In this document: positions 202-59,600 of the stretch, piece by piece
Layout: each line of letters begins with the position of its first letter
How positions within the stretch are numbered: the first letter of the stretch is position 1
From: Bolinopsis microptera
Taxonomy: Eukaryota; Ctenophora; Tentaculata; Lobata; Bolinopsidae
Length of the DNA stretch: 64,000 bases
Assembly (NCBI RefSeq): GCF_026151205.1
Contig: NC_087082.1
Span: 8,626,901 to 8,690,900 of the forward strand
Reading direction: 5' to 3'
Made by a program: the position numbers and the translations under genes
Notes under the pieces: model-generated
Database searches by the model: none
What the model saw: only the letters and a program-made list of their open reading frames with translations
Told to the model about the DNA's origin: nothing

Positions 202-3200
202 CTTGAGCTGAGTAACGTCTAAAGTAAGGGGACGAAGTGTAATGTGAGTTCGACCGTTTATTATTCTCATATAGTGTCCCAAACAATCCGGCGGCTGACC
301 TGTACAGATCTTATCAAACTAGTGTGTTAAATGTAGAGATCTCATCAAACTAGTGTGTTAAATGTAGAGATCTTATCAAACTAGTGTGTTAAAGGTAGAG
401 ATCTTATCAAGCTAGTATGTTAAATGTATGGGATATGACATAGTTTTAAAAACTGGTAAAACTGGTACCGCAGCGAGAACGATAAATAACTCACTTCCTT
501 ACAGTGAAACTTAAAACTTTCATCTAGAGACCAGTTCACGTCTAACAAAATCAAATTATGTCCAAATAGGGTCAAATGCTAAGATTTAACTGTTCCGGTC
601 ATAATTTGGTCCAAGACTAGGAGGTCCGGGAGTGAAGTTGGCTTGTAACCCTCAACTTAACCCCCAACACTACTAACAATAACACAGCGCGCTCACCTAT
701 GTGAACACGGTCACAGGTAGATAACAACAACATTTCCATCTGGTCCTGTTTGTGGACGATATTCAGCGACTTTGGTGTGAGCCACACTGCCTTAGCCTCC
801 CCACTCGGCCATTCCTGAAGAGGAAACATGTTAGCAACAGCTAGACACCTGGAACTGACTTACAAATTACAGCATACTCAGAAGAAATGTAAGTAAAATA
901 CCGATCTAATTAAAAATGGTATATAAATAAAATTGGAACTGAAGGTTGCCGGGTACTATACCTGTGTGACCCAAGACTTGTAGATATTGTGAGTCTTGTT
1001 GTCCTCTTGGGTAGGTAGAAGATGTTGTACTTGTTCTAATAGTGCGGGGATACAGTCTAGTTCCTGGGATATAGGTCACGCTTTTTAAAAGTGTAAAGCT
1101 AGGGTCTTGGTTTGAAATTAAGAGAGGCCAGGGTAGTATAGTGAGCAAGAAAGCATCCAAAGCGGGTGGGAGTCTTATAATAGATACAAATCAATAACTT
1201 TTTTCATAATAAATTATTTGAGCTAACCTCCCTGACTTCGTCCCGGATCTCCGCCAGATCCGGTTCCAATCCCTGCATTATGTCGATAGCAGCCTGTCTG
1301 TTCGTATCCCTGAACATATCTTCATAAAATTTCCTCAATTTTCTATCGCATCAGAAACGGATACCGACTACCGTAAGATCTCATTCTATAAAACGACTGA
1401 TATCAATTTGCTGATCACAGAAAAAGTTTAGAGATTGGTCTACTGGGATTTCCTTGCTAATAAAGACAGAGGTAAGCACGTGATTACAGGTAAATAGTAG
1501 ACTAACAAACCTAAAGACGTTGATGTACATGCGAGTAACCGAGGAGACTCCATCTCTCATCATCCCTGCCACTCCCCGCTCCCCTGTTCTAGTGTAGTCT
1601 CCTTTTAATGCTGCTGTACCTGAGAGGGAGTAGTCATGTGATGTTAGCTGGTTACGGTTTTAAATAAGTTGTGTTCTCAATTAAAGTACTGTCTGTGTAC
1701 GGTCTGTGTACTGTCTGTGTACGGTCTGTGTACGGTATATGCAGAAAGGTGACATACATTACCTGCGTATTGTGTACTGATAGCGTCTCCGTTGTTAGCC
1801 CATAGCAGCTTGCCCGGCACTGAGAGATCATCCTCCGTGATACCAACACCTTCAGCCTAGTATAGGGAAACGATGTAAGAAGAGGACGTAGAGGTAAAAT
1901 TAACACACTTATAGTTAGAACCAACTACATACATGTATATTGATATATAAACGCTGTAAAGAATACGAAATAATAGCCAGTATTAGCAGGTTAATTATCA
2001 GGTATTACCAGGTTATTGAGGGTGTGTTTAGCAATAGCTCCCTGCACCACGTTAGTCCTATCCAGACTGTCCATACAGTTGACCCTGACAGCCCCTACCT
2101 GGCACTCCCTCATCTCACCCCGTACCACGTGGGTGTAGCCGAACTTGTTTGTTATGCCTGGTGAGTAGGGGGTTGTAAACATGTGGTAGGGGGTTGTGAA
2201 CACGTGGTAGGGGGTTGTAAACACGTGGTAGGGGGTTGTGAACACGTGGTAGGGGGTTGTGAACACGTGGTAGGGGGTTGTTAACACGTGGTATGGGGTT
2301 GTAAACACGTGGTATGGGGTTGTAAACACGTGGTAGGGGGTTGTTAACACGTGGTAGGGGGTTGTTAACACGTGGTAGGGGGTTGTAAACACGTGGTAGA
2401 GGATTGTAAACACGTGGTAGGGGGTTGTAAACACGTGGTAGGGGGTTGTAAACACGTGGTAGGGGGTTGTAAACACGTGGTATCATTAATGATTAGTATT
2501 AGTTAATGAGTTAATAATATGCGGGACATATGAAGGAAATGTAATGGAAAATGTGGTGATATTTAGAAAATGGAATAACTGAAATTTCGTACCTTGAAGC
2601 TCTTTTAGCAACACCTGAACGTTGTCAAACTTCATTCCCGCGCAGTACTCGTTAAAATCAAATGCCACATAGGTGAGACGTTCGTTGTTGTACATGTACG
2701 CCTAGAACAGATCTATAGTTAAAAACTTTGCGAAAAGATAATAGTTGTTACACTATAAAACTGAGGTGAAAGTCATTTGTAAACCTGTAAAACTGAAGTA
2801 AAAGTAAGTTTTAAAATAAACACTGAAACTAACCACTTTAGCGAACTCGTCCCCAAGGGGAGCCTCTTTGCCCTCGCTGTCCAGCAGGTTAACAACTACA
2901 ACTTCTCCATGAGTAGCTACCAGCCTGTCCATATGAAGTTGAAATGCTTCCAGTGCTTCCTCTGAAACAAATAACGTGTCAAGATTGCGATTAGTTGATA
3001 ATGAGAGCTGAAATAGAGAGGACGGTACTCACGAGGGGACCGTAAAATGACCGGTTTATGACTCACCATGGGACCGTGAAATGACCGGTTTAGGACTCAC
3101 CAGGGGATCGTTAAATGACCGGTTTAGAACTCACCAGGGGACCGAAAAATGACCGGCGCGGTTTAGGACTCACCAGGGGACCGTTAAGATGACCGGTTTG

Positions 3201-6200
3201 GGACTCACTAGGGGGCCGTAAAATGACCGGTTTATGACTCACCAGGGGACCGTAAAATGACTGGTTTATGACTCACCAGGGGACCGTAAAATGACCGGTT
3301 TAGGACTCACCAGGGGACTGGTTTAGAACTCACCAGGGGACCGAAAGATGACCGGTTTAGGACTCACCAGGGGGCCGTAAAATGACCGGTTTATGACTCA
3401 CCAGGGGACCGTAAAATGACCGGTTTATGACTCACCAGGGGACCGTAAAATGACCGGTTTAGAACTCACCAGGGGACGGTAAAATTACCGGTTTAGGACT
3501 CACCAGGGGACCGTAAGATGACCGGTTTAGGACTCACCAGGGGACCGTAAGATGACCGGTTTAGGACTCACTAGGGGACCGTAAGATGACCGGTTTAGAA
3601 CTCACCAGGGGACCGTAAGATGACCGGTTTAGGACTCACCAGGGGACCGTAAGATGACCGGTTTAGGACGGTAGTTAGTGAGGGGTTGGTACCAGTAGAC
3701 GGGAACACTCCCCCTGATAATCGTGTAGGACAGTTGTTCTTCTCCAGCTTGTAGGATCTGCTCAGTCACTACGTAGTTTGCAGGACAACCTGAACCAGTT
3801 ACGTCTCATAGTCATAAACAATAAAATAGAGTCTGCATCAACTATCGGCAAGGGATACATAATTTGTCTTATTACGACAACCGATTCGTAATGAATCCCT
3901 CAAACATTGAAAAAAACTCCTACTATACCGATACGGCTGCAATTAGGACTAACTTAACACTCCAAGTACTCAGTGAGTAGTACTCACCGTCCTCATCAAT
4001 TCCCCTGCGTTTGAAGCGTGTGCCAGCCCGGTACTTGCTCCGTCTGGATACCACAGTGAGGGTATCAAGAGGTCCGTCAAGTGAAGGGGTAGAGGGAGGT
4101 CTGACTCCTCTCATACTCTCCTCTGTGGTAGGGGCTATCTCCGCTTGCTCTATGTACCCCTGGGGAGCATGGTTTATTGACTGGCCATTTCATGAGGGCA
4201 TTTAGCTGCTACTGAATCATGTTCAACCTACTTTGATCTGAGGAGCACGACGTGTACTGAAATTTATAACTGATCCCAGCAGAGCAACATTCCAGTACGA
4301 ACCTGCATAACGGGGATAATCCAGGGGTTGCACAGTTCGGGGAACTGGTTGTACACAGAGATAAGACATTCCAACATATTCTCATTCCAGAAATACTCCG
4401 TCTTGGCTTGCTGCCAGATCGGTTTAGTCTTATCAAGTGGTTCTTTACAGAGTTCAGTTAACGTGTGGGATATGTCTCCTTCTTCAGAGTAGTAGAAAGA
4501 TCTGCACGTGGGTGATGTTAGAGGGACTCATATTTTAGAGGGAGAGATAAAAATGAAATAACCCACAACTAGATTAAGTAACACGGAATCTTGAAAGTGC
4601 GAATGATAACCAAGCTACCGGGACAGGGTGTCAACTTTCACTTACTGGAAAGAGGGGGAGGCAATTACGGGGGGAGGGCGTTACTTACTTTTCAAACCAC
4701 TTTACAAACTCCTCCTCCAGCTTCCTCTCTATTTTAGCGTCTGTCTCTGTCACATTCTCACCTGCAGAGGAAATGATAGATACATTATTATAATGTATGG
4801 GTAACGGGAGTGCAGGAAGTCTATCATATAATTAATTTCGTACTATGCTTCCAGAATCCAGATCAAATACCGTAATTAGACACTACAAAATAACTTTAAT
4901 CTGAAGTTACCTTTAGGAGGTTTAGTGTGTTTACTGCAAGCCGGCAGATCAAGGTAGGGTGTCTCCAGGGACAGGGGTAACATCACTATATCATTTATAC
5001 GCTGAACCTGGAGAAGGAATGTGTCGGTAAATCTGTGTTATTATTGAGTTATTGCTTTTGGAAAATTATAATATCGTTTGTAAGGGAAGTGGAAGAGAAA
5101 TTAAATGTTACAGTTTGTCTGGAGGAGGAGTCGCAGTAAATCAATATTTGACCACCTCAAATGACAATATAATAAATAAGAATCGCTGCATTGAAAATTG
5201 AAATAAACAGAAAGTATGATTAATGATTTTTACCGTGGCACCGTGAAGTTTACAGACAACCTCCTTATTGGCAATCAGAACCAAGTTATCAGGGCTCTCC
5301 GGCAGGAACTTGATCTTACCAACAATACCATGACAGGTGCCTAGACAGACAGGGTCTAGAGACTCGTCTAGGATTGTAGAGTTGGAGGGGACTACTCCTG
5401 AGGAGACTGTGTTTAAAATCGCTAGGGGGAGGTGGGGGGGGGGGGAGGAGGGGGGGCCCCTGTAATACTTTTGACTCGCTGTTAATCGTAAGTCACTTAA
5501 TTAATATATATGTAACAGTCATCAGATTTTTTATATATTTGTCGGGCACCATAAGAATGTAGAGCATATAATTTCATTTCTTAATTTTAATTCTAATATT
5601 TCATGTTTTATTCCCGGACGGCTTCAAATAAACTCATACTAATTTCACAAAGCATTGCCTACAAGTTTCAACACTTCAAGTTCACACCTATTAGTAATAC
5701 CTCCCCTACGAATTCATTCTCAGAAACCTTAAGACTAAGTAACTACCTTCACCTTTCACCGTCCTAACACTATCTTAACATCAGCCAATCACAATTGAGA
5801 AACACGACTCACATGACACTACTTTCACCTCCATACTCCATAGCCGTCCGTGGCTACGATTGTAAAATAAGTCTGTCTGACCCGTTTTGAGAGATACGAA
5901 TGAACTTGTGTTAAGTTCCAATATTCTAAAAAGCCTTTGTTGACTTTACCTTTCAAGAAGTCAAACTAATATAACGAGTATCACTTTGTATTAGACGCCT
6001 AAAAAAGTACTTGAACTAGTCCTCAAGATCCCGGTATAACACCAACCTCTACATTGGTGGAGAACCCGGGCACTATTTGTTTTTGCTTGTTTTTGCTTGG
6101 AACAACTAATCGAACTCAGCTTAACGGCAGTGCAGTGAGGTCATTTTCTAATCGATCCTCGATTTGTTTTAGTTAATCTCGCTAAGCTTGTAACGTTTTA

Positions 6201-41600: not shown

Positions 41601-44600
41601 CCCAAGGTATTCAAAGAAGCAGTAAGCATGAGATGTGACACTAGGACGTTGCCATGGCAACCACTTTCTCCTCGAGTTCTCAACGACTGTGAGGGGGCTG
41701 AAATCTCACACCATCTAGTGGAGATAGCTGACTTTCTCTGTGAGTCTAATCAGTCGACAGTATAATAGTCTCAGTCTACTGCCACCTTTTAGATTTAGTA
41801 GCAACAGCAGTGCGTTTAATACCATTGTGATTTATGTAGATCAGATTTATTGTACCTATGTTTCCATTTTATTTTTGAGCTAAGTGATTATGAAAAGTTG
41901 GATTTCAGATCCTTGCATTCGGAAGTCTAGTAAGTTATATTGTCTTCTAAGCAAAGTGTGTAACTTGATTTTACTGTGTGGCACTGATTTAATTGATTAA
42001 AACTTGAGCTTAACTAATGTTAACAGATTTACATACAGCAACTTCGACATTGACATTCTTTTCCGTTCATAGTTTTTAAAACCCTTATCATCATTCCTCG
42101 CCTTCTTCATAAACTTTCTTCACTAAAAAATTCCCAGTACTGTAACGTTATTTATTTAAGTATTTAATTGCAAATCGCATTCCCTGACATTTGCAGTTAT
42201 TGTATTCTTTGAAGTAGTGTCGTAATTTAATTTTACAGCATCATACAGAGACTAAAACTTTAAATAACTTACATCCACTAAGAGATTAACCCTAACCCTC
42301 CTCTCTCTTCAGCTAGAAAGAACAGCAACCCCCGTGAACTAGCTAGTTGTATAGGCTACATCTACAACTTGACTACTAATGAGAATTGTGTGTATCTGAT
42401 TGTTAACTCAGAGCTCCTTCTCACTCTCTCCTATCTGGTTAAGTCAGCTCCTGAAGAAGTGTAAGTTTATTATATTATTCCTTTATCTTTATTATTTATC
42501 TTTATCCAGTTACTATAAGGTATTGTAGGTAAGCAAATTTAGCTTTTCTTGTTCCTAGGCCAATCTCTTGAACACGAATTTGGGAAAGGAATTAAAGTCA
42601 CGTGGTAGCTGGAACGGTGATCACGTGGTAGTTGGAACGGTGATCACGTGGTAGTTGGAACGGTGACCACGTGGTAGTTGGAACGGTGACCACGTGGTAG
42701 TTGGAACGGTGATCACGTGGTAGTTGGAACGGTGACCACGTGGTAGTTGGAACGGTGACCACGTGGTAGTTAGAACGGTGATCACGTGGTAGTTGGAACA
42801 GTGATCTCGTGGTAGTTGGAACGGTGATCACGTGGTAGTTGGAACGGTGATCACGTGGTAGTTGGAACGGTGATCACGTGGTAGTTAGAACGGTGACCAC
42901 GTGGTAGTTAGAACGGTGATCACGTGGTAGTTGGAACGGTGATCACGTGGTAGTTGGAACGGTGACCACGTGGTAGTTGAAACGGTGATCACGTGGTAGT
43001 TGGAACGGTGACCACGTGGTAGTTGGAACGGTGATCACGTGGTAGTTGGAACAGTGATCACGTGGTAGTTGGAACGGTGATCACGTGGTAGTTGGAGCAG
43101 TGATCTCGGTGGGATTATAGTCACAGTTAAACAAAGGTGTAACTTTTAAATGAGTTCAGCATTAAAATTGAGAACGTTCTATTTTCAAATGAAATAAACA
43201 TTGATACGGTATACATAGTACATATCAGCAATCAGCATAATCAACACTAAGTATTGCTTTTTTTAAAATGATTTAAAACAATCTGCCTAGTTCAACTTCG
43301 GTGTCCTGAAATAATTGACACATTTGTCACACTCCTTACAGACGACCTAAAACTGCTCGACATAATCCTTAACTTTCCTAAAGTGAAATCCCTAAAATGT
43401 TTGTTTGTGGCCAGATATATAAAAGGATTGACCCAGCTCATAGAAAATAATGTGTACCATGCAAGTTCATCAAACAATCTACCTGGATACATACAGCAAT
43501 ACCCAACAACATAGGTTATAAATCTAGGGAGACCAGCAACTAGAAACATAGCCGTAGTTAGCATTACTATTAGGATATTCGTCTTGTTAACGGTTGTGTT
43601 GGACTTTTTTACGGCTACGACTACCAGAGCAAGATTCGCTGTGATCAGACTAACACAGGGTCCGAAGTTGAAGAGAGTGAGTACTATGTAGTTGATTATG
43701 ATAATCGTCTGAGGTATTTCCGTCTCTGAGTTGTTTGCAATGTTACATATGCCGGTGAGATGCTCAAAGTTTTTTGATTCCACGAAGAAGCCTTTGTATG
43801 TGCCATATATAGTCCATACTATAGGAATGAAGCTGAAGATGACCACAAAAAGTGTTACGGTGTTTCTCTGTTTTTGAGTGGAGTCCAACATACGGAATGG
43901 AAACAGACATTTCAACAACTTATTGATTGATAAAGCGTTAAGGAAGAATCCGTTAGCCAAAAGGAACACGAGATTGTAATGAGCTATGGCCACACAAAAC
44001 CCACTACCTAGTTTCCATTCCATACCATTCATGACAGTGATAGTGATGGGTATCACAACTAAAACACAGTTGGAGATATCAGCTACCGCTAGATTCTGAA
44101 CAATCCAAACTGACATCTTATCAAGCTTTATGGCACGGTGAGAGATGGTGGAGTAAAGCACGTAGATGTTGCCAGCCAGGCCAAGGACTATAACTAAGAA
44201 ACACCATGTTAAAAGAGCTGTCTCGTTTGTTGAGTAGGTGCTGGGTGGCTTCTGGGTTGAGATGATCTCAGAGATGAAGGGGGGAGTGTGGTTATCCATT
44301 TTCAGGGGATCTTTTACTTTCTAACCTATATGTTATGATAACACGATTAGGGTAACTTTATTGAATTATTTACAGATCATACAGATTGAGAGATTAGCTT
44401 AAAAATATTTCCAACGTATCAATATCAGCAATAAACTGTTGCATTTAAATAGTCGAGATCTACGGTTACGATATCTTTATGAGGATCAGTTTGAAGACTG
44501 GATAGGTTATATATTGCTGCCCTGTGTGGAATCCAGCCTAGATCACAGACATAGAGGCTATAGAAAACATTCAACAACAATATTCCGACGCATCAACAGA

Positions 44601-47600
44601 TGCAGTGGCCTAGACTACTGGGAACGTCTCACAAAACTCAATATCATATCCTTGCAGAGACGTCAAGAAAGGTACATCTTGATCAAATAAAAACCGAAAG
44701 TTCTGGAGCTGGATAATGACGGTCAGCTGCTAATTCTGGAACAATGTTAATAAATGAAATACAAAACTGACGAACTGATATCTTCAGTACAGTCAGTAAC
44801 CTGTGTTTAACTGTTAACTGTTTATAGCTGTGTTTAAAAGGTGGTTTCAACTGAAATTGTCTGAACTGTGAAACACTAATTAGATTGCATTGTTGTGTTC
44901 TAAGCTCAATCTAGCCATGAACCATACAGTGAACCAATACCATTTGCATTTAAATGAGACCTTTAGACTCGTCAGTTCAGGGGTGTTGTCAGTTCAGGAG
45001 TCAATGAGCAAAGACAATAGGACCAATCTAAGCTCGACAATTTCAAACGTCACGTGACATTACGTGACGTCATGTTAGGATCAAGAGTTGGAGGACGGTA
45101 TTTGGTTCGTCTCTTAGGACTCATTACTGATCTGTTTTGGAGACAGGGACTACCTAAATCATAGAGACGTTTTGGTTGTACAGCAAAATACATTTAAGTG
45201 AAGCCATCACGCTACAAAGCTGACAGAGAAGGAAATGGAAGAGAAAGTGGTAACTTGGTAGTGGAGACTTCTGGTTAACTTCCCAGCTTGATATCTAATT
45301 TGAATGTAAACAATTAACAAAAGCTATGATTAGATATTGTTTATCTGTGATTAGATATTGTTTATCTTCCCTCAATTCATATTAGAAAGATAACAATGCA
45401 ACTCTATTTAATCAATGCCACAATATAATAAAACGACGCCCTGTCGAACGTAAATAAATCCTTAAACGCAACAATAATGGTATGTTGAGACTTCTCGATA
45501 TATTCCTAATTAGGTCGCACTAACCATGAGAGAATAAGCAAATAAAATGTTTAATCCGAAGTCAAAAACGCTGTTGGTTCAAAATATGCTCTGAACCTAG
45601 AACCTGTGGTTGGTCCGGGTGGCACCACTGTTTTACATACCGGAGATTGGCTGGTATTAAAGTATGGTAACGATAGTACTGGCGTTATTAAAGCACAATT
45701 ACGATAGGACTGCAGAGTGCAGGTGTTCTAGGCCTCAGGACGTGTTCTAGGCCTCAGGACGTGTTCTAGGCCTCATACGATAGTACAGTATCAGTCTTAT
45801 ATTAAAATATTAAGTTCACAGTTTTAGTCGAATATTTGCCTACACGACTGATGTTAACACTAACGACCAGTCTGGTGATAGCAAGGTTTTAACCAGAATA
45901 TATTATAGCCAACATCTACCCAGGTGGTAGTTATTAGAAGGTGGGAAAGGGTAGTTCATGTTTTACTAAAATATTATGGTTGTTTCAGGCAGCTGAAGAT
46001 TGTTCAAGTTGTAGGAGCATTGGTACAGAATAGCACAACTATAGAACCGGAGACACAACTGGGTGAGTATTAACTTTTTCTTAATCAATAAACTTTCAAA
46101 ATATTATACAAATACATAATTTTATTTCAAAGAAAATTCGCCGAATGACCTTACATGCCTTGACAAGTGGCCGAGTGTAAAAAAAATAAGGGACACCGAA
46201 ACACTGTTTCACAATATACTGAGACTTAAGTGAAACTAGTTCTACTGTCGAAACAAATATCTGTCTATAATTGTAATAAGACGAAAGAACAAACACATTT
46301 CACATTTAAAGGGCAGGTAACGACACAAAGGTGGATATCACGTGACTGCTTTATAAAGGACCTATTCTCTATAGTGATCATATCTCCCCTGGCCCTTTGT
46401 ATTTGTCAGACAACTTATCTCTCCCCTTTCTATTTGTCCGACAACTTATCTTCGAGCCAACTCTACATTTGTCAGTTTAATGTTACTTTATATTAGAAGC
46501 ATTGATATTGAGTGCCCCATTTTGCTATTGACGGAGAAAGTTATTATGTTCGTTTAACAGAACAGACAGTGCGATTCAAGGAACTGCCTCTACAAAGATA
46601 TGACAACGTCTGAGGGATCTAATAATATAAGGGATCTTAGATACTTAGCTGGCTCTTCCTCGCTGATATTTTAACCTAACCAAAATAAAATAAATAAAAC
46701 AACTCTCTCCTGCGGTAAGCGGAAAGCCGTGAAAATAGAACAACACCATTACTTATTTTAACCCGGCCCGAAATAAAATAAATAGAACAATACCATTACC
46801 AACTTGTAACTACTCTCTTTAAAAACATAAGCCACTGTGAGTTTAGATGTTTTACACTAAGGTTTCTTTAAAGTGTGAGAAATGTCAATTTCAATTTTCA
46901 ATTTACAGCTTCTACACTGACCACAACAACACTATTATTGACTACTCTCCGTGGCAATCCCCGTATTCAGATTTCAGGTGAATGTGTTACAATACTGACG
47001 GACGTGTTACAGGTGAATGTGTTACAATGCTGACGGACGTGTTACAGGTGAATGTGTTACAATACTGACGGACGTGTTACAGGTGAATGTGTTACAATGC
47101 TGACGGACATGTTACAGGTGAATGTGTTACAATACTGACGGACATGTTACAGGTGAATGTGTTACAATGCTGACGGACGTGTTACAGGTGAATGTGTTAC
47201 AATACTGACGGACATGTTACAGGTGAATGTGTTACAATACTGACGGACGTGTTACAGGTGAATGTGTTACAATACTGACGGACGTGTTACAGGTGAATGT
47301 ATTACAATACTTAATGCTGACGGACATGTTACAGGTGAATGTGTTACAATACTGACGGACATGTTACAGGTGAATGTGTTCTTTTTATCTCAACACTTAT
47401 TTTACTTCGGACATTCCAACAGCCACATTGTTACACAAGTGTGTAACCAGCCAATTACAGGAAGCCAAAGGATTCAATTATACATTAGGCAAGTGACGGT
47501 TAAGGTAGTATGTACCATACTTTCTTCGCCCGAGACTTTGCTGCAATGGGAAGCTCCTCATTTAACCCTCACACCCGATTTCTCGAGTATTTGGCTGAGT

Positions 47601-50600
47601 GGACCGGGGGGCTGCATAGACCACTCAGGATCCTTAGCTGAGCGTCGACGACGCTCACCCCACGGCTAGTGACAGAGTCGGGAATCGAACCTGGTACCTC
47701 AAGTAATGCCAGGCAGATTAACCAACTGAGCCACTAAGCCGTAAGTGCGAGAAGTTTCAATTGAGATTTACAGCTTCTACACTGACCACAACAACACTAT
47801 TATTGACTACTCTCCGTGACTGCTTTATAAAGGACCTATTCTCTATAGTGATCATATCTCCCCTGGCCCTTTGTATTTGTCAGACAACTTATCTCTCCCC
47901 TTTCTATTTGTCCGACAACTTATCTTCGAGCCAACTCTACATTTGTCAGTTTAATGTTACTTTATATTAGAAGCATTGATATTGAGTGCCCCATTTTGCT
48001 ATTGACGGAGAAAGTTATTATGTTCGTTTAACAGAACAGACAGTGCTATTCAAGGAACTGCCTCTACAAAGATATGACAACGTCTGAGGGATCTAATAAT
48101 ATAAGGGATCTTAGATACTTAGCTGGCTCTTCCTCGCTGATATTTTAACCTAACCAAAATACAATACTTAATGCTGACGGACATGTTACAGGTGAATGTG
48201 TTACAATACTGACGGACATGTTACAGGTGAATGTGTTCTTTTTATCTCAACACTTATTTTACTTCGGACATTCCAACAGCCACATTGTTACACAAGTGTG
48301 TAACCAGCCAATTACAGGAAGCCAAAGGATTCAATTATACATTAGGCAAGTGACGGTTAAGGTAGTATGTACCATACTTTCTTCGCCCGAGACTTTGCTG
48401 CAATGGGAAGCTCCTCATTTAACCCTCACACCCGATTTCTCGAGTATTTGGCTGAGTGGACCGGGGGGCTGCATAGACCACTCAGGATCCTTAGCTGAGC
48501 GTCGACGACGCTCACCCCACGGCTAGTGACAGAGTCGGGAATCGAACCTGGTACCTCAAGCAATGCCAGGCAGATTAACCAACTGAGCCACTAAGCCGTA
48601 AGTGCGAGAAGTTTCAATTGAGATTTACAGCTTCTACACTGACCACAACAACACTATTATTGACTACTCTCCGTGGCAATCCCCGTATTCAGATTTCAGG
48701 TGAATGTGTTACAATACTGACGGACGTGTTACAGGTGAATGTGTTACAATGCTGACGGACGTGTTACAGGTGAATGTGTTACAATACTGACGGACGTGTT
48801 ACAGGTGAATGTGTTACAATACTGACGGACGTGTTACAGGTGAATGTGTTACAATACTGACGGACGTGTTACAGGTGAATGTGTTACAATGCTGACGGAC
48901 GTGTTACAGGTGAATGTGTTACAATACTGACGGACGTGTTACAGGTGAATGTATTACAATACTTAATGCTGACGGACGTGTTACAGGTGAATGTATTACA
49001 ATACTTAATGCTGACGGACATGTTACAGGTGAATGTGTTACAATACTGACGGACATGTTACAGGTGAATGTGTTCTTTTTATCTCAACACTTATTTTACT
49101 TCGGACATTCCAACAGCCACATTGTTACACAAGTGTGTAACCAGCCAATTACAGGAAGCCAAAGGATTCAATTATACATTAGGCAAGTGACGGTTAAGGT
49201 AGTATGTACCATACTTTCTTCGCCCGAGACTTTGCTGCAATGGGAAGCTCCTCATTTAACCCTCACACCCGATTTCTCGAGTATTTGGCTGAGTGGACCG
49301 GGGGGCTGCATAGACCACTCAGGATCCTTAGCTGAGCGTCGACGACGCTCACCCCACGGCTAGTGACAGAGTCGGGAATCGAACCTGGTACCTCAAGCAA
49401 TGCCAGGCAGATTAACCAACTGAGCCACTAAGCCGTAAGTGCGAGAAGTTTCAATTGAGATTTACAGCTTCTACACTGACCACAACAACACTATTATTGA
49501 CTACTCTCCGTGGCAATCCCCGTATTCAGATTTCAGGTGAATGTGTTACAATACTGACGGACGTGTTACAGGTGAATGTGTTACAATACTGACGGACATG
49601 TTACAGGTGAATGTGTTACAATACTGTCGGACGTGTTACAGGTGAATGTGTTACAATACTGACGGACGTGTTACAGGTGAATGTGTTACAATACTGACGG
49701 ACATGTTACAGGTGAATGTGTTACAATACTGACGGACATGTTACAGGTGAATGTGTTACAATACTGACGGACGTGTTACAGGTGAATGTGTTACAATACT
49801 GACGGACGTGTTACAGGTGAATGTGTTACAATACTGACGGACATGTTACAGGTGAATGTGTTACAATACTGACGGACATGTTACAGGTGAATGTGTTACA
49901 ATACTGACGGACGTGTTACAGGTGAATGTGTTACAATACTGACGGACATGTTACAGGTGAATGTGTTACAATACTGACGGACGTGTTACAGGTGAATGTG
50001 TTACAATACTGACGGACGTCCTAAGAGACAGTTCCAGATCCCCTTCAGTGAGACTCTATACTCTAGCTTCTTTAGGGGAACTTATCTTCTACATCGCCAG
50101 TCAGGTAAGTACATTACAATGTGATATGAAACAGTTTTACTTCCAATTGTGTGGTGATAACCCGAAATTCTGATACTGAATACTGAATACTGAATACTGA
50201 ATACTGAATACTGAATACTGAAGAGAAACTACACCCTCCTTACACCCCCATGTTCAGGTGTTCGCACAATACTTTAAATACTTAATAATTTCCCCTCCAC
50301 TACCAGGAAGAAACAGACGGAGTTAACAGTAACTGGAGTATCCCAGCCAGCACCTTCGTGTGTATAACACGGTGTCTACGCGAAGGGGAGGAGTTTCACA
50401 CTCAACTATGCGCTGCTAAAATAGTGGAGAACGTTTGTAGTGTCAACAGTCAGTATAATAAACAGTTATCTCAAGGTTAGTACTAGTGAATGGTTATTAT
50501 AATGTTTCGAGGATCCCGGCCCTTTGGTTCAGTTATATTTCGTTAATAATTCAGTTTATAATGGCCATTAAAATTAATAAATCAGGTATAATGGCTGCTT

Positions 50601-53600
50601 TCTTAATATGATAGCTATATAATTGATTATTCAGCTGATGATAGTTCATTAGTTAATGATTCAGCTAGAGTAACTATTTAAATAATTCAGTTTATTAAAA
50701 CTATTTGATTAATAATTAAATGAATAATGACAATTGAATTAATAATCCACGTACAATAGCCGCTTACTTGATCATTCAGTTAGTTATGACTATTTAGTTA
50801 ATAATTTAGTAAATAATAGCTATTTTGTTAATCATTCAGTTATAATAGCTACAAAGTTCATAGTTTACCTCACCACCAGTATCCACGTTACATAATTCAA
50901 ATAGTTGCTTTACCAATCAGATGCGATAGCGCTGTCACTGTGGAAGCTTCAGATGAAGCAAGCAGCTACAGACTCAGCCTACATAACCTATGTACGAGCT
51001 CTGACCAACATGACCGCATACCAACCTACCCTACTGACCCACGTCATATCAAAGATAGGACTTGTCAACGTTCTCGACAACCTCAACAAGTCTCAGCCTT
51101 ACATACAGGTTTTTCTCAATTGAGAAGATCTATATTTTCTATAATTTGCATAATAACTGTCAGTAAAACACCTAATTTTTGTTACAAAATTAGTCAAAAC
51201 ATTAAATCAATTTTCAGATATAATACATACAAAAACATCCGTATAAAAACCTATATAATATTCCTAAATAAAGTAATAAGCCCGTTGCTTAGTTCTGGCG
51301 GAATCAGAAGAAGGTTTGCAGGACAGCTTCCTCTTCAAACTCAGAGTAAAGAACTTCAGCAAGGACACAGCCTTCTTCTCAGCTCTATTCCTCTGAACCC
51401 CAATAGAACGTCTCCCTCTGCTGGGTTTACTAAACTCCTTTCTGCTGACAGTATCTCTCTCCAGACTACCCGCACTGCTCTGTATTCTGATCAGGAAGGG
51501 ACGGAAAGAGGGCGTCTTCTCAAGAGGAGCACTCTTCCTCCTCTTCTTGGAGTCCAGGGAGAGGTTGTGTAGTTTTAGTTGGGGAGGTCTAGCAGGGAGA
51601 GTAGGCATTGACACGTGGTGAGTCTTCTTGGGAGTAGACATTGAGGTGGGGTTAAAGGAGTTAGGATTGAAGGGGTTGATGTTGGTGGGTTCTCTGATGT
51701 AGAACGAGAACACGCTCTGTAAGATATCATGAGGAGAGGAAGGGTCTGAAATCGGATAGTCTGAAGGGAACATTCCGGATAGTTGACTGTTGTGCAGGTT
51801 AGTTTGTGTGAGGTAGAGAGTGAGGGGTAGTTGCTGGAGCTAAGGTAGTTGTAGTAAGAAGATGTGATAGTATCAAGCAGGTGTTGGTGAAGAGTAGCTA
51901 GCAATTATTAGATTAACAGTATGATATGAAACCTGCCTTATATACCACCCCATTTGATGAGATCACGTGATGAAACGAGGACTTATCAGATTTCAGGACG
52001 GGTCAGATGATCAGCAGTCCTTAGCTCTGTGCAGGTTAATGAGAGTTGGTGACTGGTCGGATGTGTCACGTGATATCAGCTAGTTATAGCACGTGATCTG
52101 ATACAACCATGTGATATATAGCGAATACTAACTTACACATTTATTAAAAATTGTTTATCCATTAAATTTGACCGGTATTAGAAAATGAAAATCTTGGTGA
52201 TTTTCATGGCGAAATGGTTCCAGAATCCTAAGGGATATGCACCCCACCCGGACCGGGTGGCGCTCGGCCTGTTACTCCGCAACATCTGCATGCTTATAAA
52301 AAGTATAAAGACTGGTGTCCCCAGGTTGTATGGAATATGATAAAATACGCCATCACTGACCGGTAAATTGAGCGGCCATCCACAAAAGAAAAGCGGCCGC
52401 ATTTCTTTGTATTCCTACACATGCGTGGTGAAATTGTAAATTCTGGATAATATATCCAACTATATGAAAGTTGTTACTTGGCCCTGAACATCGTTCCCTT
52501 TACATTTGAAACCATGTTATTGTTGAATGTTGATAGGTTGCGTAGATATTAATTATGGAAATGTTATGCTCCGGTTATTTTCATCTTTTATGGGTTTGTT
52601 AGTGTCCCTAGGCCGCTATACACTCCGATATCTCAAGCTCAAACTTCTTTTTAGAAAAAAATTTGAATAGTTTATTAATACAATGACTATTCATTTTGTA
52701 GAAAAAAGAAAATGAAATACAAATCATGAGAATCACATATATAGTTGCATGAAAAGCACTAATATGTACAAATCATGAGAATTACATGTATGTAATTTAT
52801 AAACACACGCTTAATATAACAATTATGTAACTGGTAGTTATGTAGGGCTCTTATGTATTTATTTGGTATGCCATAAGGATCGGAATCTGACAAGAAAAAT
52901 TGTGATCACAGATCATGGAGACGAATTTATTTGGAAATTGGAAACAAATTATGACAGTCAACCGATAAAGGAAATATATACTAATATTCAGACAGTTAAT
53001 TTAAGGATATAATAGCAAATATATTATCTCCTTTAAGTTGCCACAAAATAGACATGAATTCGAATCTCAATCGAACGAATATCATTATTGCCGATAATCT
53101 TAACAATCACTTTTTTTTCTTTTAAAAATTCTAAAAATTTTAAAAATCATTCATCTTAATCAAATTTGCCCCCTAGGCATTTTATAGTTCATCGATCCTT
53201 TTTACCGATCACCTAAAATAGAAATGAATTCGAATATCAATGGAACGAATATCATTTTGGTCAATCTTCTTAACAATCACATTTTTGTTTATTTTTTCCC
53301 TTTTTTTATTTAAAAAAAATGTAAAAACAATCATCTTAATCAAATTTGCTCCAGTACAGGCTTTTCATTGTTCATCGATCATTTTAACTAATCAATAATC
53401 ATCTTAAATCGATACTTTTTTTACTTTTTGTAAATGTTTAAAACCAATCATCTTAATCAATTTTGCCCCACGCAGCACGTAGAGCGGCCCGTGACGTGAG
53501 ACAAAATCGATAATTTTAATCACTCATTTTAATCATTGAAAATCTAAATATTCGCCCAAATCAGAGTTATATTTATAAAACGAAAATAATCACTTAATGT

Positions 53601-56600
53601 GGGAAGAGGATGGAGATCAAATGTATAAAGTAGTTCTGATCAGATTTCTGTATAATGTATATTCCCTTGTCTTCTTTGAGCCAGATACAAAATTTTGCCG
53701 AGTATGTACTATGTAGGGAGTTCTGATCCGATCTCTGTATATCCTCGTCTTCTTTGAGCCAGATGACGAACTTTTTCATAGATGGTGAGTGGTAGAAGGA
53801 GAACTTTTGCTATGTAGTTTCTGTACCTTGCTCTCATTTCCGGTTTACGTAGGATCAGGATGGTTGGGAACAGTGCTGCGTTCATCAGAGGAAGTGTGAA
53901 TTGTAACATTACCAGAATGGGTATTGGCAATACAGGAGCAATATACAGTATCAAGGGGTATGTCACAATATAGTACAAAGAGACGCTACACAAGTACAGT
54001 AACGAGATTAGAAACACTGTTAAGTTAACTTGGTTTGCAGTGTTCAGCTGTGGGTTTTCGTGACTTCCAAATGTTTTCTTTATATAGATCATCTAAAGAA
54101 CCATGCATACAAGCACGATCAAGCAAGGCAGACCAAACTGAACTAAAGGCACAGCTATGCCCATGATATCAAACACATGAGGTTTGCTGCGCCATGAGAC
54201 AATGCAAAGTAACGCATCATCAACCTTAGTACAAGAGATGTTGTGCCTCTCCAATTGTTTCTATTACAGTGATAACGTTCCATGGACCCACAGTCCATAC
54301 CAACACCACATTTTGGGCTATGATTAATACTAGTTATGACATCATTCCACTCCCAAACATCAATAATGCACACGACCAGGAGAATGGACGGGTAAATGAA
54401 GAGGACTATTTTCAAAAGTCGGTTATTCTGCGTGTAAAATGGACGCATTATGTTAATAGTCTTCACAACCGTTAGCACAAGAACACAAAACGTCGAAGTA
54501 ACGTAGCAGAGTACACCAAACTTTTGGCAGACCAGAAATGTCCAAGGATGCATCATCATAGAAGGGTCCTTCAAGCACAGTAGTGATATTGAGCCTCGTC
54601 CTATCTCAAAACACGCACTTCCAATGTCCACAGCACCAATCAGAATGAAGAATCGGCAAGAAATCCCTCTCCAGTCCTTTTGGTAATCATATATGATCAC
54701 AGAGTTCTGGATCATGATATAAAGAGCAATCGTGATGTTGATTGGGGATATATACTGATAGCCAAAGTAATGACCGTCAAAAACTATGGAGGTACTGGGC
54801 TAGGCGAGTTAGCAGTAGTCATATTATTAGTCCAGATCATTGTTCTGCAGCGTAACTTTACGAGGATTTGGAGGAAACGAACTAACTATACGATCCCGAA
54901 ATGAACTGCGGAAAAATACTAGGAAACTTGCTCTTTTGTATCAAATTATCTCTGACGAAGATAATGCACTGTGAGAATCTTACTTATAGTAGCTACAGTG
55001 ACTTTTGGATTGTTGCGACTTTATTTCCTATTTTTAAACTTTACCAATATTTGTATCCTAAAAACTTGATGTTCTTATTAGGAACTAATGCACCATGGGA
55101 ATTTCACTTATAGTAGAGTAGTAGCTACAATGAGTTCTGGATTCTCGTGATTTTATTTCCTATTAGTATTATTTATTTTTATTATTTCTAATACAATGGC
55201 TTTAAGAAAAAATGGGTTAAATAGGTCCTCGCTGTTTTACAAAGATCCAATGTTAGCATCTAACGTGAGCGTGAAAGATAATCTAAGCGTTATACTTTTA
55301 CATCTTTTAATTTATTTTAGATATTTGTCCGTCATGCAGGACTGATTAACTCTTTGTGATGTTATTTTACCGTCAAGGAGTTAGAATACAGTTTTATATA
55401 TTATGGGTTGAACAAGTAGTTTATGCAAGGCATATTGTGATTTAACTCTGGACTAAGATGATTTGATTCAGGGTATTAAATTCAGATCCTTATTCTAAAG
55501 TCATCCTTATTCTAAAGTCATCCTTATTCTAAAGTCATCCTTATTCTAAAGTCATCCTTATTCTAAAGTCATCCTTATTCTAAAGTCATCCTTATTCTAA
55601 AGTCATCCTTATTCTAAAGTCATCCTTATTCTAAAGTCATCCTTATTCTAAAGTCATCCTTATTCTAAAGTCATCCTTATCCTAAAGTCATCCTTATTCT
55701 AAAGTCATCCTTATTCTAAAGTCATCCTTATTCTAAAGTCATCCTTATTCTAAAGTCATCCTTATTCTAAAGTCATCCTTATTCTAAAGTCATCCTTATT
55801 CTAAAGTCATCCTTATTCTAAAGTCATCCTTATCCTAAAGTCATCCTTATTCTAAAGTCATCCTTATTCTAAAGTCATCCTTATTCTAAAGTCATTCTTA
55901 TTCTAAAGTCATCCGGATCCTTATTAGGTATCAGACAATTTTGTGACGAAATATTTCAAAAAATCCATTAAATCAATTCACATTATAATATAACAATATG
56001 TACAAAAACATCAAAAAATGAGTCCCAATTAGTTCATTAAATAAAGTAATAAGCTCGTTGCTTGGTTATAGCGGAAGGTTTGCAGGACAGTTTCCTCTTC
56101 AAACTCAGAGTAAAGAACTTCAACAAGGACACAGCCTTCTTCTCAGCTCTAGTCCTCTGAACCCCAATAGAACGTCTCCCTCTGCTGGGTTTACTAAACT
56201 CCTTTCTGCTGACAGTATCTCTCTCCAGACTACCCGCACTGCTCTGTATTCTGATCAGGAAGGGACGGAAAGAGGGCGTCTTCTCAAGAGGAGCACTCTT
56301 CCTCCTCTTCTTGGAGTCCAGGGAGAGGTTGTGTAGTTTTAGTTGGGGAGGTCTAGCAGGGAGAGTAGGCATTGACACGTGGTGAGTCTTCTTGGGAGTA
56401 GACATTGAGGTGGGGTTAAAGGAGTTAGGATTGAAGGGGTTGATGTTGGTGGGTTCTCTGATGTAGAACGAGAACACGCTCTGTAAGATATCATGAGGAG
56501 AGGAAGGGTCTGAAATCGGAGAGTCTGAAGGGAACATTCCGGATAGTTGACTGTTGTGCAGGTTAGTTTGTGTGAGGTAGAGAGTGAGGGGTAGTTGCTG

Positions 56601-59600
56601 GAACTAAGGTAGTTGTAGTAAGAAGATGTGATAGTATCAAGCAGGTGTTGGTGAAGAGTAGCTAGCAATTATTAGATAAACAGTATGATATAATGAGACC
56701 TGCCTTATATACCACCCCATTTGATGAGATCACGTGATGAAACGAGGACTTATCAGATTTCAGGACGGGTCAGATGATCAGCAGTCCTTAGCTCTGTGCA
56801 GGTTAATGAGAGTTGGTGAATGGTTGAGTGTGTCACGTGATATCAGCTAGTTATAGCACGTGATCTGATACAACCACGTGATCTATAGCGAATACTAACT
56901 TACACATTTAATTAAATTAAAATTCGACTGGTATTCGAAAAAGGAAATCTTTGGAATATTTCAAGACGGTAGTAAGGGTTATTTTAAAGTCATCCTTAAG
57001 AATTTCTCTGATACCCCTGTTTAAGAATCTTCATCTAAGGCTATTAATTAACGGCGCGATTAACACTAATTTCCGCTTCATTCCAGAAAGAGATCCTGAA
57101 CTTCGTGATACAAGGACTAACCGTGAATAAACCTAACGCAACATGTAAACGCATACTATCAGACAGAAACCTACTCTCCATTGCTATCACCCTCATGGGC
57201 AACCCTCACTCTTTGTCAAAGTAAGTTTTAAGTTAGGTTAGAATGTTTCTTTGGTAGGTAAGTAGTGTTAAATATATGTAACTACTAACTCTGTTGTAGT
57301 TTAATAATTATCTGGTAAACTATTATTTAAATTATTTTCAACCTTTTCTCTAATTTTATGTTCTTCCGACTTCCCGAGGATGCCTGAATTAGTTTCCATG
57401 TAACCAACTTATGATTTGTTCGGTTTGATACTGTCATTTTGAAACTGTCTAACTATGAAGTGTTTTATTTGAAACTATGTAACATAAGCGAATCTTCTCC
57501 AGGTCGTTTGCTGCCCTTTTGATATCACTGTTACTTGTGGGTAACGATGCTCTTGTAGCTGCTTGTAACCTCAAGTAAGTCACTAACTTTTAAATCTTGC
57601 TTTTAAATCTAGTGCTAGTTGGACAATGATTCGGTTGCTAGTGGGGCAATGATTCGGTTGCTAGTGGGACAATGATTCGGTCTAATGAAATGAAAAATTA
57701 TATTTCTAACCCAATTATAAGCGACAAAGTTTATGTTTAAAACTAACAAGTTGGAGATAAGCAATACCTTTTACTAACGACAGAGCGAACGATTCGTAAA
57801 ATAGGTACAACAGAAACTAGTAATGTATGTGTGAATCAGGCGACACTGTCTTACATTGTATTACTCAGGTTGATACAAACGTTAGACCGGGAACTAAAGA
57901 GGGTGTCAGAAGATTATTCCAGCAAGTGTTTAGCTTATCTCTCTCACGCTCTTCTCTCTTTTATACCTACTTTACTGGGTCAGTTTTCAAATGAGCTATA
58001 TTCAGCTGTATCAGCTATATTCAGCTGTATCAGCTATATTCAGCTGTATCAGCTATATTCAGCTGTATCAGCTATATTTCTGTTATAATTGAGGATTAGA
58101 TATAATTCTTGAAGTTGTCTTCCCATTTTGTTTTGAATTAATTAAAATTTATTGATCCGCTCACTAAGTCGATGGTTACCAGTAGTAACAAGTCAGATAC
58201 CTTGCCAGTTGCCATACCAATTGATATCGAGAACTATCTATCAAATGTATTATGATATCACAACTCTCAGATCAAGTAGAAGTATCACTGAAGAAAGTAG
58301 AAAACAGAAGGAACCCCAACTCCAACCAACTAAAAGATCTGAACAGCTCCCTCAGTTCATTACCCACTATTCTACATTTGCTAACTAGTAGACCACTTTC
58401 CAACCAGGCCCTGGCTGTTGTCAACATGGACCAACTCTGTGATATTCTCAAGATGGTTTATAATTTTAAGATGATAATTTGTTATTTAATTTAGATATTT
58501 AGTAATTTACAACTTAGAAAATTATTAACTTATAAACTGTATCCGAATGCCCTCTGGTAGAGGACACTCTTTCTACTCTAACTATCCTATCCTAGGTACC
58601 AGGGATACAGTCAGGAGATACAGGACTAGGCAGCCCTGGTCTGGTAGAGGACACTCTATCTACTCTACTCTCGCTGTCAGAGATTTGTCTGCCTCATATG
58701 AGTTGTGAACAAGCAGTTCCAACAATTGGCAACCTCTGTAAATGTCAGGTGAGCAGTAGATTTTAGTTTAGTTAGCATTTAAAAGAAGTTCTGAAAGTTA
58801 TAATGTGAAAACAACCTTGTCGAAACTAGTAACGAATTTTAGATGCCATTCTATTGTTTTTAATCTCATAAACTATTTGATCGATTGAATGAAAGTAAAA
58901 TCTTCGAAAAAAAGTCCCATATAATATTGTAAGAGTCTAAGCCTCAATGAATTTCCAGAGGGCACGGTAGTAGTAGTTACAGTCAGCATTTACTGCTGTA
59001 AAGGGTCCTGGCTTTTCTTTCTCCCCTGTTGCTATCACATACCGGCCTGATCTGGCGTGCTCCAAATACACTGAAATAACGACCAGTTTAGTTTATAATA
59101 ATGGACTAGATACAAATATAAAAGATCGTAAACACAATCAAGCTTTCAAGAGGAGGTCATAAAATGCATATAAAAACTATTTATAATTGAATAGCAATGT
59201 ATTAATTTATATTATTATTATCTACCCTCAATCTGTATTAAATAAACTTATTGTATCTATGGATGTATTAAATTGATTATTAACATGAGTCTCAGTAAAT
59301 GAATCACTTACATCCGTTAGCCCAGACCCTAACTTTATAGGTAGCCAGGCCGTAGTAATCCATATCAGCAGCTCTGGTCCCTGAAGCCTCTAACCACCCC
59401 TGATCCTGACACCTCCTGTTTCTGATATCTACTGTGTCTGGGGCCAGCATGTAGCGGCCTGTGTTTGCGTGTTCTATATACCTGCGGGTCGGAAATAGTT
59501 CAGTGTCGTTCAGGAATTTGAACTGTTAACGTCGGAATTCGGCTCAAGATTTGTTTCATATTTCTTTATTAAGACTTTTTCTAAAGGCTTGAATCATCCT

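What the first reader, a model, noticed from the sequence alone, without database searches (positions are those of the whole stretch)
49468..50104. ULK4 intron 12 consists entirely of tandem copies of exon-like sequence with AG|GT borders
The intron between exon 12 (third copy) and exon 13 is thirteen 35-bp units. Its donor is the start of the first unit, its acceptor the end of the last, and exon 13 starts with the same 27-28 bases. Without the array, exon 12 reads straight into exon 13 in frame (both phase 1). This is what is expected if an intron arose by tandem duplication of an exonic AG|GT segment, a proposed route of intron gain. Unit length 35 is not a multiple of 3, so unspliced or partly spliced units shift the frame.
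Basis: partly seen in the sequence, partly recalled or inferred. Interest (0 to 1): 0.88.

Follow-up and report, generated by a model that had tools for sequence, protein, structure and literature searches.

The report
Tandem repeats grown from splice junction
In a comb jelly's ULK4 gene a 35-base piece straddling the start of an exon is repeated over and over into the neighbouring intron; this is most likely a duplicated splice junction of a kind known from lancelets rather than proof that a new intron was born.

Summary
49537-49991 is thirteen 35-bp units, followed by exon 13, whose first 28 bases match the unit. The gene is Bolinopsis microptera ULK4: public protein P0001 is encoded here, on a contig of the same length.

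The intron-gain reading is weaker. P0001 joins exon 11 directly to exon 13, and 0 of 26 other aligned relatives has residues where 'exon 12' would insert 23. The array is then the 3' end of one 3.9-kb intron, and each unit is 7 nt of intron end plus 28 nt of exon start: a tandemly duplicated 3' splice junction. Lancelets have this class, called 'mirages' (PMC3087553).

The window holds a mirror case on a 5' junction of a SAC1-like gene. A 190-kb sample gave a homologue-supported 3' case in a copine gene and a probable 5' case. Of 39 copied acceptors only the last keeps the frame.

Against me: 'exon 12' is exon-like in composition, so a lineage-specific exon, and hence a gained intron, remains possible. 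RNA would decide.

The parts
45989..46062 (+). ULK4 exon 11, ends phase 1 (CTG G|gtgagt); its donor is the 5' end of the intron that contains all arrays
   Evidence: matches P0001
46063..49991 (+). The intron between exon 11 and exon 13 as used by P0001 (3929 bp)
46909..46977 (+). 'Exon 12' copy 1 (69 nt, open in phase 1); in my reading the old 3' tail of the intron, possibly a lineage-specific exon
46978..47380 (+). Upstream array 1 of the same 35-bp unit (one 42-nt variant unit)
47774..47818 (+). Truncated copy of 'exon 12' (45 nt)
48192..48237 (+). Short remnant of the same array
48631..48699 (+). 'Exon 12' copy 2, identical over 69 nt
48700..49074 (+). Upstream array 2 of the same unit (two 42-nt variant units)
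49468..49536 (+). 'Exon 12' copy 3, ends ATTTCAG, the presumed seed of the unit's AG
49537..49991 (+). Main array: 13 x 35 bp; each unit = 28 nt of exon-13 start + GTTACAG, with TACTGAC (one unit TACTGTC) inside
49992..50104 (+). ULK4 exon 13; first 28 nt identical to the unit; the only one of 39 AG|GTGAATGT acceptors that keeps the frame
3027..3669 (-). Mirror case in the neighbouring SAC1-like gene: 34-bp unit = 28 nt of exon end + GTGAGT, about 19 copies (the first copy lies in the exon)
58553..58580 (+). A single 28-nt copy (96%) of ULK4 exon sequence 58640-58667 in the intron just upstream of that exon

Best explanation
The array is a 3' splice-junction minisatellite (a 'mirage'). A 35-bp segment straddling an existing junction, 7 nt of intron end (ATTTCAG, now GTTACAG) plus the first 28 nt of exon 13, was duplicated in tandem and amplified towards the intron. 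Copies upstream of the last one became part of the intron, so the protein did not change. 'Exon 12' is then the old 3' tail of that intron; blocks of tail plus array, with an inserted non-array block, were later duplicated upstream. Each unit boundary is CAG|GTGAAT, donor-like and acceptor-like at once, and nearly every unit has a branch-point-like TACTGAC taken from the codons for ILTD, so recursive splicing is conceivable. Only joining at 49992 gives an open frame; wrong joins meet a stop and would be expected to be degraded. Shown: unit anatomy, frames, absence of exon 12 from P0001 and the aligned relatives, other junction arrays. Inferred: that the intron is older than the array, order of events, splice choice, decay of wrong products.
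For: P0001 (public ULK4-like protein, B. microptera) equals my exon 11-to-exon 13 model over its first 737 residues, and its exact 7-mer segments map across 38651-63829. 26 of 26 other aligned relatives have 0 residues in the 23 exon-12 columns, and the flanks abut there. Each of the three full arrays has ATTTCAG before its first unit, and that seed agrees with the next unit at 32 of 35 positions. A mirror array on a 5' junction lies in the next gene: exon part of the consensus unit 27 of 28 identical, and the joined exons align to SAC1 chains 3lwt and 4tu3 through the junction with a one-residue gap. A copine 3' junction array is in the sample: a 46-bp unit with 17 exon nt, whose VAIDFT aligns to Protein BONZAI 1 at E 2.6e-7. 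Of 26 exons against 25 introns of ULK4, the only two pairs scoring 17 or more are an exon and the intron just upstream of it. The class is described in lancelets on both 5' and 3' boundaries, with splicing reported as undisturbed (PMC3087553, section 16 read).
Against: 'Exon 12' has GC 0.435 against 0.458 for exons, 0.315 for introns and 0.23-0.42 in twelve other 69-nt intron tails of the gene; its coding log-odds is highest in the needed phase (3.4, against -0.58 and 1.43), which 4 of 112 open intron 69-mers reach and which 15 of 62 exon 69-mers do not exceed. Three identical copies would hamper unique mapping of RNA reads, so an annotation pipeline may have missed it. The ancestral intron at this position was not tested in another species: no other animal genome was available. 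The copine match to Pfam Copine is below that family's cut-off (21.7 against 27 bits). In the SAC1-like gene only about 65 nt of the intron lie outside the array.
Confidence: 0.6

Rival explanations
1. Intron gain: 'exon 12' and exon 13 were once one ctenophore-specific exon; a 35-bp exonic segment holding AG|GT was duplicated in tandem, AG and GT became acceptor and donor of a new intron, and amplification produced the 13-unit intron (Rogers model, as told in PMC4974935; fission-yeast cases in PMC3629103; human cases of repeats at exon-intron boundaries in PMC2812944).
For: The array fills 49537-49991 with no other sequence; the join is in frame without it; exon 12 is exon-like in GC and coding score.
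Against: P0001 lacks exon 12; 0 of 26 other aligned relatives have residues there; 1215 of 6260 intron 69-mers of this gene are open in a given frame, so openness alone is weak.
Confidence: 0.24
2. 'Exon 12' is a cassette exon, included in some transcripts, on top of a junction-seeded array in an old intron. Inclusion of one copy keeps the frame.
For: 69 nt, phases 1/1, an acceptor-like ATTTACAG before it, three identical full copies, and an open frame from each copy to 49992 only.
Against: The protein search shows one member sequence for the P0001 cluster, no isoform.
Confidence: 0.12
3. Assembly artefact: copy number of array and block duplications is wrong.
For: Long blocks are nearly identical (300-nt copies at 100%; longer pairs about 94-100%, the lower values where arrays of different make-up are aligned), which is hard for assemblers.
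Against: Units differ at a few sites and each array has its own order of variants. An artefact would change copy number, not the junction nature of the unit.
Confidence: 0.04

Closest known systems
'Mirage' minisatellites of lancelets (Adh3, globins BflGb6 and BflGb9, troponin C; related repeats in PGBD5)
   Same: Tandem repeats spanning an intron-exon boundary, on 3' and on 5' boundaries, many units with AG/GT, splicing reported as undisturbed (PMC3087553 section 16; PMC3902484 one passage).
   Different: Here a ctenophore; 35-bp units (BflGb6/9: 150-160 bp; Adh3: 10-72 bp), 13 copies plus two further arrays in the same intron, and block duplications. Splicing and somatic instability untested.
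[quoted passage not shown] ATP2A1; fission-yeast SPOG_01682/SOCG_00815)
   Same: An intron stretch made of tandem copies of neighbouring exon sequence with proto-splice sites (PMC4974935 section 3; PMC3629103 passages, which gives the site as AGGC).
   Different: Those are reported as gains between coding sequence on both sides; here the left flank, 'exon 12', is absent from the annotated protein and from the aligned relatives.
Potato RdRp intron gained by a duplication crossing an intron-exon boundary
   Same: The duplicated segment crosses an intron-exon boundary (PMC4974935 abstract).
   Different: There a new intron was detected within the duplicated region; here the annotated protein is unchanged by the array.
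Human internal tandem repeats in recently duplicated genes
   Same: Minisatellite-sized repeats, some at exon-intron boundaries, said to be able to form novel introns (PMC2812944, passages).
   Different: Studied between human paralogues with transcripts; here one gene, one assembly, no transcripts.

Membership tests
mirage minisatellite | tandem repeat whose unit spans an intron-exon boundary | tested here: met
   7 nt intron end + 28 nt exon start, if P0001's structure is right
mirage minisatellite | reading frame of the mRNA kept by using the outermost junction | tested here: met
   only 49992 of 39 acceptors gives an open frame; P0001 uses it
mirage minisatellite | normal splicing in RNA | not testable with these tools
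   no RNA data; only an annotated protein
mirage minisatellite | length variation between haplotypes or somatic instability | not testable with these tools
   one assembly only
intron gain by tandem duplication (Rogers model) | source segment exonic on both sides of AG|GT | tested here: inconclusive
   left side absent from P0001 and 26 of 26 other aligned relatives, yet exon-like in composition
intron gain by tandem duplication (Rogers model) | intron absent at this position in relatives | not testable with these tools
   no other animal genome held; protein searches give no gene structures
intron gain by tandem duplication (Rogers model) | protein unchanged by the repeats once they are spliced out | tested here: met
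   exon 12 to exon 13 open with 0 units, closed with 1 to 13

The most novel reading that the evidence does not exclude
'Exon 12' is a real ctenophore exon and the array is a newly gained intron built only of repeats, each boundary being donor-like and acceptor-like at once with a branch-point-like motif between, removed by stepwise (recursive) splicing through the AG|GT points; together with the other junction arrays this would show splice-junction repeats actively making new intron structure in ctenophores.
Probability: 0.2. Interest if true: 0.8.

Novelty: new member of a known kind. Interest (0 to 1): 0.47.

Why it matters
If the class recurs in ctenophores as in lancelets, junction-spanning tandem duplication may be a general, mostly neutral process: it copies coding sequence into introns without changing the protein and supplies ready splice signals from which introns or exons may later arise. 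It also warns that repeats of exon sequence with AG|GT borders are not by themselves proof of intron gain. The locus, with 39 copies of one acceptor and only one that keeps the frame, is a natural test of how the spliceosome picks a 3' site.

Tried and rejected
A third protein search with a 301-residue stretch including exon 12, aimed at shorter ctenophore fragments, scored none of 1986 candidates at E 0.01 or better. The two earlier searches scored only the 7990 candidates sharing most words, so absence of another ctenophore ULK4 from the database is not shown.

The C4 place with 69% similarity to the array is an unrelated 31-bp array. Pfam on 10 open frames at array edges in the sample (10 of those listed) gave no family above its cut-off; one zinc-knuckle match fell just under (20.6 against 20.8 bits). 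The branch-point-like motif is weak evidence: 12 of 13 acceptors checked in this gene have some yTNAy within 60 nt. The unit's GTTACAG could also derive from the internal GTGTTACA rather than from ATTTCAG; sequence alone does not decide.

A genome-wide pattern count for tandem donor motifs could not be run: the same request was sent 13 times and never answered. So no genome-wide rate is claimed.

Full report
What is there. The array at 49537-49991 is exactly thirteen 35-bp units, bordered by a 69-nt open stretch ending ATTTCAG and by exon 13 of ULK4, whose first 28 nt are the unit's first 28 nt. The unit recurs in two more arrays upstream, each preceded by an identical 69-nt stretch, with a truncated fourth copy of that stretch at 47774 and a short array remnant near 48192. 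Larger blocks repeat at spacings of 857 and 837 bp; pairwise identities of the long pairs are about 94-100%, lower where arrays of different make-up are aligned.

Which gene and species. The best database match is a ULK4-like protein named Bolinopsis microptera (P0001) on a contig of 20,825,282 bases, the length of contig C11 in which the window lies. My exon model without exon 12 equals its first 737 residues, and exact 7-mer segments of P0001 map across the window from 38651 to 63829. Pfam finds a kinase domain and HEAT_ULK4 in P0001.

The key point. P0001 reads ...PETQL|GECVTILTD...: exon 11 joined to 49992, with no exon-12 peptide. In an alignment of P0001, P0001 with the exon-12 peptide put in, and 26 other proteins, 0 of the 26 has a residue in the 23 exon-12 columns, and the flanks abut there. 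I used P0001-P0011 of the 94 hits and P0001 with P0095-P0110, the 17. The other 83 hits were left out: by name or Pfam they are mostly other protein kinases, but P0012, a shorter protein named ULK4, is among them. The 26 are mostly vertebrates, with an echinoderm, two snails, a priapulid, a plant RUNKEL-like protein and one eukaryote without a name, so independent lineages are fewer than 26.

Consequence. The array is the 3' end of one 3929-bp intron, and its unit is 7 nt of intron plus 28 nt of exon: a duplicated 3' splice junction. Seed and next unit agree at 32 of 35 positions. Of 39 AG|GTGAATGT acceptors between 46978 and 49992 only 49992 gives an open frame, from exon 11 or from any of the three full exon-12 copies; retention of 1 to 13 units always meets a stop (checked through the exon ending at 51108). 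The unit contains CTGAC with its A 15 nt before the exon start (the branch-point consensus is recalled, and 12 of 13 acceptors checked have some such motif within 60 nt). Unit donors score 8.8 on my recalled matrix against 12.9 for the donor of exon 13.

Evidence against my reading, in full. Exon 12 has exon-like GC (0.435) and a coding log-odds of 3.4 in the needed phase, the best of its three phases; 4 of 112 open intron 69-mers score as high, and 15 of 62 exon 69-mers score no higher. The training set is this one gene. 1215 of 6260 intron 69-mers are open in a given frame. The annotation may have missed an exon present in three identical copies, and its RNA support could not be seen. That the exon 11/exon 13 intron is older than the array is inferred: no other animal genome could be looked at.

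Other cases. In the next gene, on the minus strand, a 34-bp unit repeated about 19 times consists of the last 28 nt of an exon plus GTGAGT; the exon part of the consensus matches at 27 of 28. The gene is SAC1-like: Syja_N in Pfam, and the joined exons align through the junction, with a one-residue gap, to SAC1 chains 3lwt and 4tu3 (yeast by recall). The acceptor that I read near 2962 lies in about 65 nt of non-array sequence, so at least that splice site did not come from the unit; the rest of that intron is array. In 20 stretches of 10 kb taken at fixed 1-Mb steps on two contigs (one fully masked, so 190 kb read), an array in L011 (8229 to the end of the stretch) has a 46-bp unit ending in 17 nt of a copine exon (BONZAI 1 alignment; the Pfam Copine match is under its cut-off; the acceptor is my reading). 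In L026 a 37-bp array follows a probable donor with 18 of 22 exon-end positions shared, but no homologue confirms that exon. So four of about 35 independent arrays (37 rows, three of them ULK4) look junction-seeded, three of them homologue-supported. I inspected the others only partly, the window was chosen because of its array, and I show no statistical enrichment. Within ULK4, of 26 exons against 25 introns, the only two pairs scoring 17 or more join an exon to its upstream intron: exon 13, and the exon at 58596-58748; one non-adjacent pair scores 16.

Why junctions. A tandem duplication that crosses a splice junction can be neutral because the outermost site still works and the copies fall into the intron; one inside an exon changes the protein. 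This is inference. None of the four unit lengths (34, 35, 37, 46) is a multiple of three, which fits units that are not translated, though four is few.

Known class. Such repeats are called mirages in lancelets and occur on both boundaries (PMC3087553, section 16 read; PMC3902484, one passage). The first description (Adh, Nucleic Acids Res 2002) is not held; I know it only as cited there. Human internal tandem repeats at exon-intron boundaries have been linked to new introns (PMC2812944, passages). Searches for ctenophore with minisatellite (2 papers), ctenophore with intron, tandem repeat and splice (10 papers), Bolinopsis with intron gain (none), and mirage with minisatellite and amphioxus (2 papers, both lancelet) listed no ctenophore case by title or abstract start; I opened none of the ctenophore papers, and the library is open-access papers only.

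Odds. On rechecking I lowered the best explanation from 0.62 to 0.60, because the SAC1-like intron is nearly all array and so says less about which came first.

Noticed in passing
window 3027-3669, minus strand: 34-bp array made of exon end + GTGAGT at a donor of a SAC1-like gene: mirror image of the ULK4 case.
   Followed up: yes
L011:8229-10000, minus strand: About 38 copies of a 46-bp unit spanning the 3' splice junction of a copine exon.
   Followed up: partly
L026:7460-7693, minus strand: Degenerate 37-bp array that seems to start on a 5' splice junction of an unnamed gene.
   Followed up: partly
window 58553-58580: 28-nt copy of ULK4 exon sequence in the intron just before that exon.
   Followed up: partly
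window 2165-2482, minus strand: 21-bp array ending right before the acceptor of the next SAC1-like exon; the unit holds no exon sequence (by eye).
   Followed up: no
window 47500-47740, 48360-48600, 49200-49440: Repeated block with a tRNA-like stretch by eye (ARAGORN calls none); a 37-nt part recurs on many contigs. Perhaps a short interspersed element.
   Followed up: no
window 51264-51839 and 56037-56603, minus strand: Two nearly identical open frames (191 and 188 aa) inside one ULK4 intron; perhaps a recent nested duplication.
   Followed up: no
window 43292-44320, minus strand: 342-aa open frame that reads like a seven-helix receptor (by eye), nested in the ULK4 intron before exon 11.
   Followed up: no
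L010 and L019: 10-kb sample stretches that are almost wholly satellite (29-bp x 309, 43-bp x 236).
   Followed up: no
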